In this document: in pieces, positions 15,601-21,402 of the stretch
How the letters are laid out: each line of letters begins with the position of its first letter
How positions within the stretch are numbered: position 1 is the first letter of the stretch
Assembly: GCA_029936885.1 (NCBI GenBank)
Contig: JAPYRR010000014.1
Location: forward strand, 1-32,387
DNA from: Fidelibacterota bacterium
Lineage (GTDB): Bacteria; Fidelibacterota; Marinisomatia; Marinisomatales; UBA1611
DNA length: 32,387 bases
Direction of reading: 5' to 3'
Translations under genes and position numbers: made by a program
Notes under the pieces: model-generated
What the model was told of the DNA's origin: nothing
Database searches by the model: none
What the model saw: the letters and a program-made list of their open reading frames with translations, nothing else

Positions 15601-15869
15601 AACATTTAAGGCAAATTCGTTTTACAAATCTTCCAAGTCATTGTCGGATTCGAATCTTTACAATTTCGGGTGAATGTGTTGCAGGCTGCAATGATAATAA
15701 TCCTTTTGAGCATCAAAGTGAATTTACAGGAAACGCTTGGTGGGATATGCGATCAGAGAATAATCAGGAAATAGCTCCTGGACTCTATTTATTTCATGTA
15801 GAACAATTATCAAGCGATGGGAAAAAAGTTTTGGGTGAACATATTGGCAAATTTGCGGTGATCCGATGA
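12672..15869 (+). CDS. Large secreted protein with FN3-like region and non-canonical C-terminal domain (VPNPY...GKFAVIR)
   Basis: Signal peptide-like MMKSTYLYLLIFTSILFAVD; DVVTGYADFEGYKLYKSNDGGGSWGS...DGLEYTYSIVAYDMG region; C-terminus VVPNPYIVQSGY...RIRIFTISGECV...APGLYLFHVEQ...GKFAVIR. Paralogous to the 16885 ORF. Confidence 0.75.
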   Translation: MMKSTYLYLLIFTSILFAVDPSIKNIDSNVPDRYRKTNTAKIGDYPFPTNPMSDRAKGFIDQGRVKTAIANYGSFINWDFHPSGIWGDYSYLPAVSFIAGVPGNKNTNNFNWTQLETVIDDDGAPLYSTWSSTAAYDDWYPASGDTVYKGIIFELDADDGLYQPENEKFSLDGFDNDKQFFFDHENRKIILSTLGESDPAKSSTRVGFIYPWALRPALISREDQFDYYDYGEDLEEWTDDDNYTYYGANSAESHFISPEQKTDWHAGTMSRINTHQTENNASDIFSETPWVSGEDTYPVLAHSGYSQTWPTRLNNATGEMDSYWPGWWAEDYNINLPGCSKSRKDPDCWESVPGRFISDMDVYMEFDDRWAHRANNVNTNDEYEQTGYPMGLRVMAEAHSYGVSYAEDIMFVTVKVRNESGDWCAEDEDGNPVYDSDGTRLCGEGMIMPDGTKLNGGKGFDYSGMALGFYMDADVLMGDWDGYNSGLHTNDDDFMKYYWELFEVNNDRMLISMAMIGDHDGGSGVPGYILDEPSATAHPGNEFGIVATQLLDSPKATDPIDLDQDGTIDIFPGEPLKMTDWHWVDWYQRPGIVSPESNSPSCYAGSDGCPVARNKEEILYKLMVGDTSNLSIGEKNWHFHTPNPGTDLGSELNPHFDSVVGLKEEPVYLREPLGLDCVLIMSCAPFDLPVGREVPFSFCIIFGQTEDDLVNNARFAQVMYNSRYQGFTPPTKPTVHAETDQGEVRIYWNNHAENSRDVVTGYADFEGYKLYKSNDGGGSWGSADDMIYDTDGIFAGWRPYEQYDLTALEDSLHCIYSGDVDCSGSESRNHAINGEDPYFPWFTLGNDNGFDAIRLDEPKVIDGDTMIYVYIDRNVVDGLEYTYSIVAYDMGVEPPFNTSYKDIGNGQFETVIDTNYSNPDQWADPSGYASIENSKGTTVLDRNFVQVYPGVMPAANVSNIGVVPNPYIVQSGYKESEHLRQIRFTNLPSHCRIRIFTISGECVAGCNDNNPFEHQSEFTGNAWWDMRSENNQEIAPGLYLFHVEQLSSDGKKVLGEHIGKFAVIR

Positions 15870-16889
15870 GATATTTCTACCTTCTCCTGATGATACCTGG
15901 CCTGGTATTAGGTCAGTATCGTGATATTCCTGATATTGTAACGAAAGTTGCTACATCTGCTGGTGGGTTCTTAAAACTAGAGACATCTACCCGGGCCATC
16001 GGTATGGGTGGGTCTCAAGTTGCTTCCGGTCGTGGCGTATCGGGTATTCCTTATAATCCAGCCAGTATCGCATTTATAGAAAAGAGTGAGGTTTACTTTT
16101 CTCAAGTGAATTACTTGGCAGGTATCACCCATGGAGTCCTGACCTATGGTACCCGAATAACACCCTCTGATTATATCGGATTTCACTTATTTTATTTAGA
16201 TAGTGGTCCCATGGCAGTAACAACAGAACTTTTCCCAAATGGAACGGGAGAAAACTTCAGAGTTTTCTCAATGGCCATGCGCACAACTTATGCAAGACGC
16301 TTGACAGATCGGTTAAAAGTGGGTGGATCTTTAAATTATATCCGAGATGCCATAGCAGAGACGAAGATGCAAACAGTCTCATTTGATATTGGTTCCAACT
16401 TTGATACAGGGATCTATGGAATGATTTTAGGGATGAGTATCACAAACTTTGGTCCTGAAGTAGAATATACAGGAGAGGACCTAACGGTTCCAGTTGCAGA
16501 CACGATTGATGTGGATGGCAGTCTTCAACGTATAACAGATAAATTTCCTTTACCCTTAGTTTTTAGACTCGGCATAGAGAATGAACTGATGGGACCTAAT
16601 AGTACATTTATTAAAAATGAGATCCATCGATTAATCTTTAGTATTGATGGCATTAAGCCCAGTGACTACACAGTTTATGGCAGTATGGGGATGGAGTATG
16701 CTTGGCAACGTTTGGCATTTGTTCGGGCAGGCACTCATTTCGGTCATGATACAGCCGGGTTCAGTCTGGGTGCTGGTATAAATCTTCGCTTAGGCAAGAT
16801 GGCATTGAAAGTAGATTATGCCTTTGTGGATTACGGCATACTCACGAATACAAATCAACTCGCTATTGGACTGGATTTTTAAAGATGAA
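15846..16889 (+). repeat. Direct repeat copy 1 (~1,044 bp) spanning the end of the upstream gene, the PorV-like gene and the start codon of the next gene
   Basis: Base-by-base reading matches 20359-21402 (offset 4,513). Flanks diverge at 15845/20358 (T/G) and 16890/21403 (A/T). Confidence 0.92.
15866..16882 (+). CDS. PorV/PorQ-like outer-membrane beta-barrel protein, copy 1
   Basis: Signal peptide, then AGGFLKLETSTRAIGMGGSQVASGRGVSGIPYNPASIAFIEKSEVYFS, typical of PorV/PorQ (FadL-like) N-termini. Ends in alternating beta-strand segments (NQLAIGLDF). Confidence 0.78.
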   Translation: MRYFYLLLMIPGLVLGQYRDIPDIVTKVATSAGGFLKLETSTRAIGMGGSQVASGRGVSGIPYNPASIAFIEKSEVYFSQVNYLAGITHGVLTYGTRITPSDYIGFHLFYLDSGPMAVTTELFPNGTGENFRVFSMAMRTTYARRLTDRLKVGGSLNYIRDAIAETKMQTVSFDIGSNFDTGIYGMILGMSITNFGPEVEYTGEDLTVPVADTIDVDGSLQRITDKFPLPLVFRLGIENELMGPNSTFIKNEIHRLIFSIDGIKPSDYTVYGSMGMEYAWQRLAFVRAGTHFGHDTAGFSLGAGINLRLGKMALKVDYAFVDYGILTNTNQLAIGLDF

Positions 16890-20382: not shown

Positions 20383-21402
20383 GATATTTCTACCTTCTCC
20401 TGATGATACCTGGCCTGGTATTAGGTCAGTATCGTGATATTCCTGATATTGTAACGAAAGTTGCTACATCTGCTGGTGGGTTCTTAAAACTAGAGACATC
20501 TACCCGGGCCATCGGTATGGGTGGGTCTCAAGTTGCTTCCGGTCGTGGCGTATCGGGTATTCCTTATAATCCAGCCAGTATCGCATTTATAGAAAAGAGT
20601 GAGGTTTACTTTTCTCAAGTGAATTACTTGGCAGGTATCACCCATGGAGTCCTGACCTATGGTACCCGAATAACACCCTCTGATTATATCGGATTTCACT
20701 TATTTTATTTAGATAGTGGTCCCATGGCAGTAACAACAGAACTTTTCCCAAATGGAACGGGAGAAAACTTCAGAGTTTTCTCAATGGCCATGCGCACAAC
20801 TTATGCAAGACGCTTGACAGATCGGTTAAAAGTGGGTGGATCTTTAAATTATATCCGAGATGCCATAGCAGAGACGAAGATGCAAACAGTCTCATTTGAT
20901 ATTGGTTCCAACTTTGATACAGGGATCTATGGAATGATTTTAGGGATGAGTATCACAAACTTTGGTCCTGAAGTAGAATATACAGGAGAGGACCTAACGG
21001 TTCCAGTTGCAGACACGATTGATGTGGATGGCAGTCTTCAACGTATAACAGATAAATTTCCTTTACCCTTAGTTTTTAGACTCGGCATAGAGAATGAACT
21101 GATGGGACCTAATAGTACATTTATTAAAAATGAGATCCATCGATTAATCTTTAGTATTGATGGCATTAAGCCCAGTGACTACACAGTTTATGGCAGTATG
21201 GGGATGGAGTATGCTTGGCAACGTTTGGCATTTGTTCGGGCAGGCACTCATTTCGGTCATGATACAGCCGGGTTCAGTCTGGGTGCTGGTATAAATCTTC
21301 GCTTAGGCAAGATGGCATTGAAAGTAGATTATGCCTTTGTGGATTACGGCATACTCACGAATACAAATCAACTCGCTATTGGACTGGATTTTTAAAGATG
21401 AA
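20359..21402 (+). repeat. Direct repeat copy 2 (~1,044 bp)
   Basis: Appears identical to 15846-16889 when read through in full. Confidence 0.92.
20379..21395 (+). CDS. PorV/PorQ-like outer-membrane beta-barrel protein, copy 2 (identical 338 aa protein)
   Basis: Translation identical to the 15866-16882 product. ATGA overlap with the preceding PKD-like gene. Confidence 0.78.
   Translation: MRYFYLLLMIPGLVLGQYRDIPDIVTKVATSAGGFLKLETSTRAIGMGGSQVASGRGVSGIPYNPASIAFIEKSEVYFSQVNYLAGITHGVLTYGTRITPSDYIGFHLFYLDSGPMAVTTELFPNGTGENFRVFSMAMRTTYARRLTDRLKVGGSLNYIRDAIAETKMQTVSFDIGSNFDTGIYGMILGMSITNFGPEVEYTGEDLTVPVADTIDVDGSLQRITDKFPLPLVFRLGIENELMGPNSTFIKNEIHRLIFSIDGIKPSDYTVYGSMGMEYAWQRLAFVRAGTHFGHDTAGFSLGAGINLRLGKMALKVDYAFVDYGILTNTNQLAIGLDF

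What the first reader, a model, noticed from the sequence alone, without database searches (positions are those of the whole stretch)
15846..21402. Perfect ~1,044-bp direct repeat carrying two identical PorV/PorQ-like genes between divergent cargo genes
The sequence shows two blocks (15846-16889 and 20359-21402) that I could not distinguish at any base, 4,513 bp apart. They flank a cargo gene whose paralog (12672-15869) is highly diverged. An old tandem duplication would also have let the porV copies drift, so recent duplication, gene conversion or strong homogenisation is implied. An assembly artefact must be excluded.
Basis: partly seen in the sequence, partly recalled or inferred. Interest (0 to 1): 0.85.

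Follow-up and report, generated by a model that had tools for sequence, protein, structure and literature searches.

The report
Twin secretion-carrier genes kept identical
Two copies of an outer-membrane secretion gene, which arose in an old duplication in a group of marine bacteria, are repeatedly overwritten with each other's sequence so that they stay identical, while the partner genes beside them have split into two different proteins.

Summary
Each block holds the last 24 nt of a large surface-protein gene ('cargo', ending GKFAVIR) plus a complete 338-aa PorV/PorQ-family barrel gene. The genome is a Ca. Neomarinimicrobiota MAG.

Relatives argue against both a recent duplication and a false copy. 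The order cargo1-porV-cargo2-porV is conserved. In 9 genomes of two families of this order, and in one genome of another order, the two copies are 97-100% identical, although congeners are saturated at synonymous sites. An eleventh genome pairs at 76%. In a third family the copies have escaped and group by position. All cargo1 genes lack the same ~395-aa middle part of an ancestral long cargo, and all cargo2 genes lack its N-terminal half. So one [cargo-porV] cassette was duplicated long ago, the cargo copies divided its domains, and gene conversion still homogenises porV.

Best reading: each barrel is the carrier/anchor for the C-terminal secretion domain encoded just upstream (like PorU:PorV and PorZ:PorQ). 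The evolutionary part is well supported; the function is inferred. It is a new case of a rare, known phenomenon, long-lasting concerted evolution.

The parts
15846..16889 (+). repeat copy 1 (homogenised tract): last 24 nt of cargo1 + porV-1 + 7 nt
   Evidence: identical to 20359-21402 over 1044 bases, no extension
20359..21402 (+). repeat copy 2 (homogenised tract): last 24 nt of cargo2 + porV-2 + 7 nt
   Evidence: only two copies in the genome
15866..16882 (+). porV-1, 338-aa PorV/PorQ-family outer-membrane barrel
   Evidence: NF033709 E 2e-49, PF19572; PDB 6h3i_F E 2e-6; predicted 14 strands, best fold match PorV 8gl6_F E 4e-14
20379..21395 (+). porV-2, identical to porV-1
12672..15869 (+). 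cargo1, 1065 aa: N region + FN3-like segment + C-terminal domain; lacks the middle region of the ancestral long cargo
   Evidence: no Pfam/NCBIfam family
15561..15866 (+). C-terminal domain of cargo1 (T9SS-CTD-like, PNPY...GKFAVIR)
   Evidence: weak match to PorZ/PorU CTDs; seven predicted strands; fold match of the model to PorU 6za2 and PorZ 5m11
16885..20382 (+). cargo2, 1165 aa: PKD repeats + FN3-like segment + middle region + C-terminal domain; lacks the N region of the ancestral long cargo
19990..20379 (+). C-terminal domain of cargo2 (PNPY...GKFAVIR, with a family-specific insertion)
7037..9229 (+). conserved first gene of the cluster, putative lipoprotein by its N-terminal signal, 730 aa
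   Evidence: sequence; synteny in relatives
9226..12669 (+). TonB-dependent-receptor-like outer-membrane protein with N-terminal carboxypeptidase-regulatory-like domain
   Evidence: PF13715, plug domain; synteny
21453..30050 (+). three downstream proteins with type A T9SS sorting tails (one an S8 subtilase), conserved neighbours of the cassette
   Evidence: PF18962, PF00082; synteny

Best explanation
An ancestral unit [long cargo gene - porV] was tandemly duplicated once, long ago. The cargo copies then divided the ancestral domains: cargo1 kept the N region and lost the middle, cargo2 kept the middle and lost the N region, and both kept the C-terminal domain (CTD). The two porV copies, 3.2-4.6 kb apart in direct orientation, have since been repeatedly rewritten from one another by homologous recombination (gene conversion), so they stay near-identical within a genome while diverging freely between genomes. 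The tract runs from the last 20-35 conserved nt of the cargo gene to the porV stop codon because that is where homology begins and ends. Functionally (inferred), each barrel collects the CTD of the surface protein encoded just upstream from the type IX translocon and holds it at the outer membrane.
For: Shown: same gene order in relatives. Within-genome porV synonymous divergence is 0-0.012 in six other genomes of the window's family, and 0.098 and 0.004 in two genomes of another family, against about 1.8-2.2 or saturated between congeners. The porV tree groups copies by genome in families f1, f8 and f11 and in G184 of another order, but by position in f12; a clade of all copy-1 genes is rejected, AU p = 1e-38. 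The tract ends at the same places in independent genomes. G184 has a perfect 1,263-bp tract that also covers about 150 nt of non-coding DNA, so the process acts on DNA rather than through protein selection. All cargo1 share one deletion junction and all cargo2 lack the N region, across several families and at least two orders; outgroups have one long cargo and one porV. The genome has the T9SS core: SprA and PorU over their curated cut-offs. Inferred function: PorV fold; the cargo CTD resembles those of PorU and PorZ by sequence and fold; four to five other PorV-family genes in this genome also directly follow a CTD-bearing ORF.
Against: Conversion was not observed; it is inferred from patterns. 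All relatives here are MAGs or drafts, and assemblers can smooth differences of a few per cent. Deep nodes of the porV tree are unresolved, so one shared duplication rests on cargo architecture and synteny. Some lineages have only one porV. CTD1 and CTD2 differ (44-65% identity) in every genome, whether or not the porV copies differ, so a need for identical carriers is not shown. CTD-bearing cargo1 paralogues elsewhere in relatives have no porV beside them, so a strict one-to-one pairing is unproven.
Confidence: 0.83

Rival explanations
1. Recent, independent tandem duplications of porV in each lineage, each time inserted between cargo2 and its downstream neighbour, so the copies are young and have had no time to diverge.
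For: Within-genome copies are nearly identical; related lineages carry one porV in either position (G036/G048 after cargo1, MED636/NP104 after cargo2); outgroups have one.
Against: It needs about ten or more separate insertions at the same junction, each with the same ends, in genomes that already share the cargo1/cargo2 architecture. In f12 the copies are old and group by position. G042 (76%), G004 (92-96%) and G039 (97%) form a graded series.
Confidence: 0.08
2. Assembly artefact: one real porV duplicated falsely, or two distinct copies collapsed to one consensus.
For: The repeat is longer than a short read; many relatives' contigs end inside or at porV; G014 and G126 carry Ns in the copies.
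Against: The same arrangement is present in many independent assemblies, including a contig of 330 kb (G039) with 28 scattered differences, stop-codon and 3'-end differences elsewhere, and G012 graph ends that show cargo1 and cargo2 both entering porV through the same 55 nt. Two direct copies around a unique insert form a loop with only one consistent path, so a contig through it is plausible (inference). Collapse cannot turn about 70% identity into 100%.
Confidence: 0.04
3. Purifying or dosage selection alone keeps two identical PorV proteins, without exchange of DNA.
For: Both cargos have a CTD that could need the same carrier.
Against: Synonymous sites are identical within genomes but saturated between genomes; in G184 non-coding sequence is homogenised too; lineages with diverged copies exist.
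Confidence: 0.02
4. The identical direct repeats serve as a recombination switch: crossing-over between them removes cargo2 plus one porV and leaves cargo1-porV, giving population-level variation of the surface.
For: G007 (96% complete) and G008 have cargo1-porV joined directly to the downstream gene, and cargo2 is found nowhere in those assemblies: the product expected from such a crossover.
Against: The lost DNA could not be regained from within the cell; dropping a repeat loop is also a common assembly outcome; most genomes keep cargo2; no recombinase or inverted repeat was found nearby.
Confidence: 0.06

Closest known systems
Long-lasting recurrent concerted evolution in prokaryotes (tuf, amoCAB, psbA/psbD, fla, mtrA and others; Wang & Chen 2018, PMC6053082)
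   Same: Paralogues in one genome are closer to each other than to orthologues, synteny fixes the positions, and synonymous sites are homogenised across the gene in many species of an order (their criterion is at least five species).
   Different: porV, or any secretion-system gene, is not among their 26 genes (tables read). Here the neighbour in the duplicated cassette diverged by complementary domain loss while porV stayed identical, and several lineages have escaped.
PorV (T9SS outer-membrane shuttle; PDB 6h3i, 8gl6; PMC5562754, PMC10994853)
   Same: Same family, predicted 14-stranded barrel, in a genome with SprA and PorU; expected to bind 7-stranded CTDs with a conserved Lys near the C-terminus (K of GKFAVIR).
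   Different: Far below the PorV equivalog cut-off (62 against 250 bits); encoded directly behind particular surface-protein genes.
PorZ:PorQ and PorU:PorV pairs of the attachment complex (PMC5562754)
   Same: A large surface protein with a CTD is held by a PorV/PorQ-family barrel; the cargo1 CTD is closest to PorU and PorZ CTDs.
   Different: Cargo1 and cargo2 are not PorU or PorZ by family scan; duplicated cassette; pairing inferred only from gene order.
SprB-SprF / PG1035-PorP type B pairs (PMC9143113)
   Same: A surface protein is held by its own FadL-like barrel, and the genes can lie side by side (sprB-sprF).
   Different: SprF/PorP are a different family; the scan of this protein hits PorV/PorQ models only.
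Concerted evolution of Helicobacter pylori outer-membrane protein paralogues (bab, hom; papers listed)
   Same: Gene conversion between duplicated outer-membrane protein genes.
   Different: There it is within one species and concerns adhesins; here it runs across families and orders and homogenises a secretion carrier.

Membership tests
PorV/PorQ family (NF033709, PF19572) | score above the curated cut-offs | tested here: met
   168.8 bits vs 90 and 31.5 vs 27
PorV/PorQ family (NF033709, PF19572) | 14-stranded FadL-like outer-membrane barrel | tested here: met
   predicted model with 14 strands, pLDDT 76; best PDB matches are PorV chains
PorV proper (NF033710) or PorQ proper (NF033711) | equivalog cut-off | tested here: not met
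   62.3 vs 250 and 85.6 vs 220 bits
PorV/PorQ family (NF033709, PF19572) | binds CTDs of secreted proteins | not testable with these tools
   needs biochemistry
T9SS cargo (type A CTD) for cargo1 and cargo2 | CTD model above cut-off (TIGR04183 / PF18962) | tested here: not met
   15.6 bits vs 23 for cargo2, no hit for cargo1
T9SS cargo (type A CTD) for cargo1 and cargo2 | 7-stranded C-terminal beta-sandwich resembling known CTDs | tested here: inconclusive
   seven predicted strands at 981-1063 with pLDDT about 80; PorZ 5m11 match over 107 columns, PorU 6za2; the whole model is of low confidence
T9SS cargo (type A CTD) for cargo1 and cargo2 | genome encodes the T9SS core | tested here: met
   SprA 538 bits vs 200; PorU 620 bits vs 420
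Long-lasting recurrent concerted evolution (PMC6053082) | paralogues in one genome closer than orthologues, in at least five species of one order | tested here: met
   10 genomes of the order, plus G184 of another order
Long-lasting recurrent concerted evolution (PMC6053082) | synteny shows that the duplication predates the species | tested here: met
Long-lasting recurrent concerted evolution (PMC6053082) | synonymous sites homogenised | tested here: met
Long-lasting recurrent concerted evolution (PMC6053082) | absolute duration (millions of years) | not tested
   no dated tree available
PorP/SprF type B carrier family | match to PorP/SprF models | tested here: not met
   no such family among NCBIfam or Pfam hits

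The most novel reading that the evidence does not exclude
The two identical porV genes are held identical by selection because both halves of a once single surface protein still assemble on the same carrier, and the same repeats occasionally delete cargo2 as a population-level surface switch (as the cargo2-less G007 and G008 loci would suggest).
Probability: 0.07. Interest if true: 0.72.

Novelty: new member of a known kind. Interest (0 to 1): 0.5.

Why it matters
[quoted passage not shown] 26 prokaryotic genes were listed in the one broad survey read here (PMC6053082), none of them from a secretion system. This locus is a clean natural experiment: in one duplicated two-gene cassette the cargo diverged by splitting its domains while the carrier stayed identical, and some lineages have escaped. 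It makes testable when repeats stop converting and whether a carrier barrel must match its cargo. It also explains why these genes break or vanish in draft genomes (contigs end at porV), and it points to cargo-carrier gene pairs as a general layout of the type IX system outside Bacteroidota.

Tried and rejected
1) Short contigs as a sign of an unresolved repeat: porV clusters in the protein catalogue sit on short contigs, but a single-copy gene of similar length from the same window (TPR protein) shows the same; argument dropped. 2) Co-divergence of carrier and cargo: CTD1-CTD2 identity does not track porV1-porV2 identity; not supported. 3) Homogenisation by protein selection alone: rejected by synonymous sites and the non-coding part of the G184 tract. 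4) Mobile element or repeat elsewhere in the genome: only two copies, no inverted repeats, no transposase among the annotated genes. 5) Literature: no paper on PorV with gene conversion, nor on Marinimicrobia/SAR406/Neomarinimicrobiota with PorV, in the library; absence in an open-access library is weak evidence. 7) The whole-chain model of cargo1 is poor (pLDDT 55); its domains other than the CTD were not interpreted.

Full report
OBSERVATION. The two blocks are identical over 1,044 of 1,044 bases at exactly the stated coordinates, and the next base on each side differs. The genome assembly (1.71 Mb, 125 contigs, 87% complete) holds only these two copies. Close relatives in named collections are Candidatus Neomarinimicrobiota (Marinimicrobia, SAR406) MAGs. 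Each block contains the last 24 nt of a large upstream gene (…GKFAVIR, stop), a complete 338-codon gene and 7 further nt.

GENES. The repeated gene belongs to the PorV/PorQ family (168.8 bits against a cut-off of 90) but is neither the PorV nor the PorQ equivalog. Its only sequence relative in the PDB is PorV, 6h3i_F. [quoted passage not shown] The genome also encodes SprA and the sortase PorU over their curated cut-offs. The upstream genes, called cargo1 (12672-15869) and cargo2 (16885-20382), end in a domain that matches PorZ and PorU C-terminal domains weakly by sequence. In cargo1 that domain is predicted with seven strands, and the cargo1 model matches PorU 6za2 and PorZ 5m11 by fold. Seven strands and a conserved lysine near the C-terminus that touches PorV are features of solved T9SS signal domains (PMC10994853).

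RELATIVES. Of 130 genomes of the order, 31 carry this gene. The order lipoprotein - TonB-receptor-like - cargo1 - porV - cargo2 - porV - secreted proteins is conserved. In genomes where both copies are assembled, nucleotide identity between the two porVs is 100% (G000), 99.9% (G006, G017, G027, each differing only in the stop codon), 99.4% (G019, all six differences in the last 13 nt), near-identical apart from Ns (G014, G126), identical over the shared part but for the stop codon (G010), 97.3% (G039), 75.9% (G042) and about 53% (G060, G043). Synonymous divergence is 0-0.012 within genomes of the window's family, but 1.8-2.2 or saturated between members of the window's genus.

TREE. In families f1, f8 and f11 each genome's two copies are sisters. 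In f12 copies group by position: G060 and G043 second copies (100/99 support) apart from the first copies (100/100). Holding all first copies of the ten two-copy genomes together is rejected (AU p = 1e-38). One genome of another order in the class, G184, has a perfect 1,263-bp tract that reaches 237 nt upstream of the start codon, through about 150 nt of non-coding DNA into the cargo CTD.

AGE OF THE DUPLICATION. Outgroups have one long cargo gene and one porV. Mapped on the 1,439-aa long cargo of G181, every cargo1 matches residues ~1-940 and then ~1340-1439, with the same junction, and every cargo2 matches ~710-736 to the end. The long gene was therefore duplicated with its porV, and the two cargo copies lost complementary parts. 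The shared cargo1 junction in f1, f5, f8, f11 and f12 and in G184, G171, G163 and G173 points to one old event. This rests on architecture and synteny; deep nodes of the porV tree are open. The reverse direction (fusion of cargo1 and cargo2 into a long gene) could explain some members, such as G180-G182, but does not simply explain the outgroups.

MECHANISM. Shown: homogenisation within genomes at synonymous and non-coding sites, with the ends of the tract at the ends of homology. Inferred: gene conversion by homologous recombination between direct repeats 3.2-4.6 kb apart. Loss of identity at the extreme 3' end (G019, and stop codons) is what tract ends would leave. Diverged pairs in G042, f12 and G163 look like lineages where conversion has stopped. 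Single-porV loci with no cargo2 (G007, G008) are what crossing-over between the repeats would leave, but could also be dropped assembly loops.

ASSEMBLY. In G012 the cargo1 contig and the cargo2 contig end in the same 55 nt, which are the first 55 nt of the porV contig: the assembly graph of an independent genome shows the same repeat. Many relatives' contigs end in or at porV. Real small differences in G039, G019 and G004 show that copies are not simply cloned by software. For the window's contig the last per cent of identity stays unverified.

FUNCTION (inferred). PorV carries CTD proteins from the translocon, and PorU and PorZ are held by PorV and PorQ (PMC5562754). Type B cargo such as SprB is anchored by its own barrel, encoded next to it (PMC9143113). 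In the window's genome at least four other PorV-family genes directly follow an ORF ending in a CTD-like tail (C124, C53 twice, C123, probably C120). So these are probably carrier/anchor genes paired with their cargo. Against strict pairing: cargo1 paralogues with the same GKFAV(I/V)R end exist in relatives without a porV next to them. Against a need for identical carriers: CTD1 and CTD2 are 44-65% identical everywhere, with no link to porV identity.

NOVELTY. Wang and Chen (PMC6053082) list 26 prokaryotic genes with long-lasting recurrent concerted evolution by criteria this locus meets (at least five species in an order, synteny, synonymous homogenisation); porV is not among them. No paper on PorV conversion or on PorV in this phylum was found. 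It is a new member of a known, rare kind, with the added feature of a partner gene that split its domains.

Noticed in passing
window 9226-12669 and 7037-9229: The TonB-receptor-like protein and the preceding lipoprotein carry several acidic D-x-N-G-x-W/D loops (EF-hand or dockerin-like), and the window's first ORF end (1-282) matches Dockerin_1; calcium-binding loops seem common on this cell surface.
   Followed up: no
window 1145-4177: Trigger factor-clpP-clpX operon directly upstream of the cluster; ORFs of the same lengths stand in the same place in G011, and partly in G023.
   Followed up: partly
window 4255-6960 (-): M6-family metalloprotease with a T9SS sorting tail on the opposite strand, upstream of the cluster.
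   Followed up: no
L005-L012 (G000 contigs C71, C124, C53, C125, C49, C123, C120): Eight further PorV/PorQ-family genes in this small genome; four to five directly follow a CTD-bearing ORF, suggesting many cargo-carrier pairs.
   Followed up: partly
L070 and L082 (G008 C22 and C86): Two contigs of one MAG both carry cargo1-porV with nearly identical porV (362/368, remaining differences partly Ns), perhaps two strains in one bin.
   Followed up: no
window 16885-20382: cargo2 of the window's family has a ~400-aa N-terminal PKD-repeat extension absent from cargo2 in families f5, f8, f11 and f12; the repeats match the C-terminal part of myxosortase-dependent M36 peptidases (NF038112).
   Followed up: no
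L104-L106 (G182, G180, G181): Long single cargo genes in the same family as G184, which has the split pair; they may be ancestral or re-fused by recombination in the shared FN3-like segment.
   Followed up: partly
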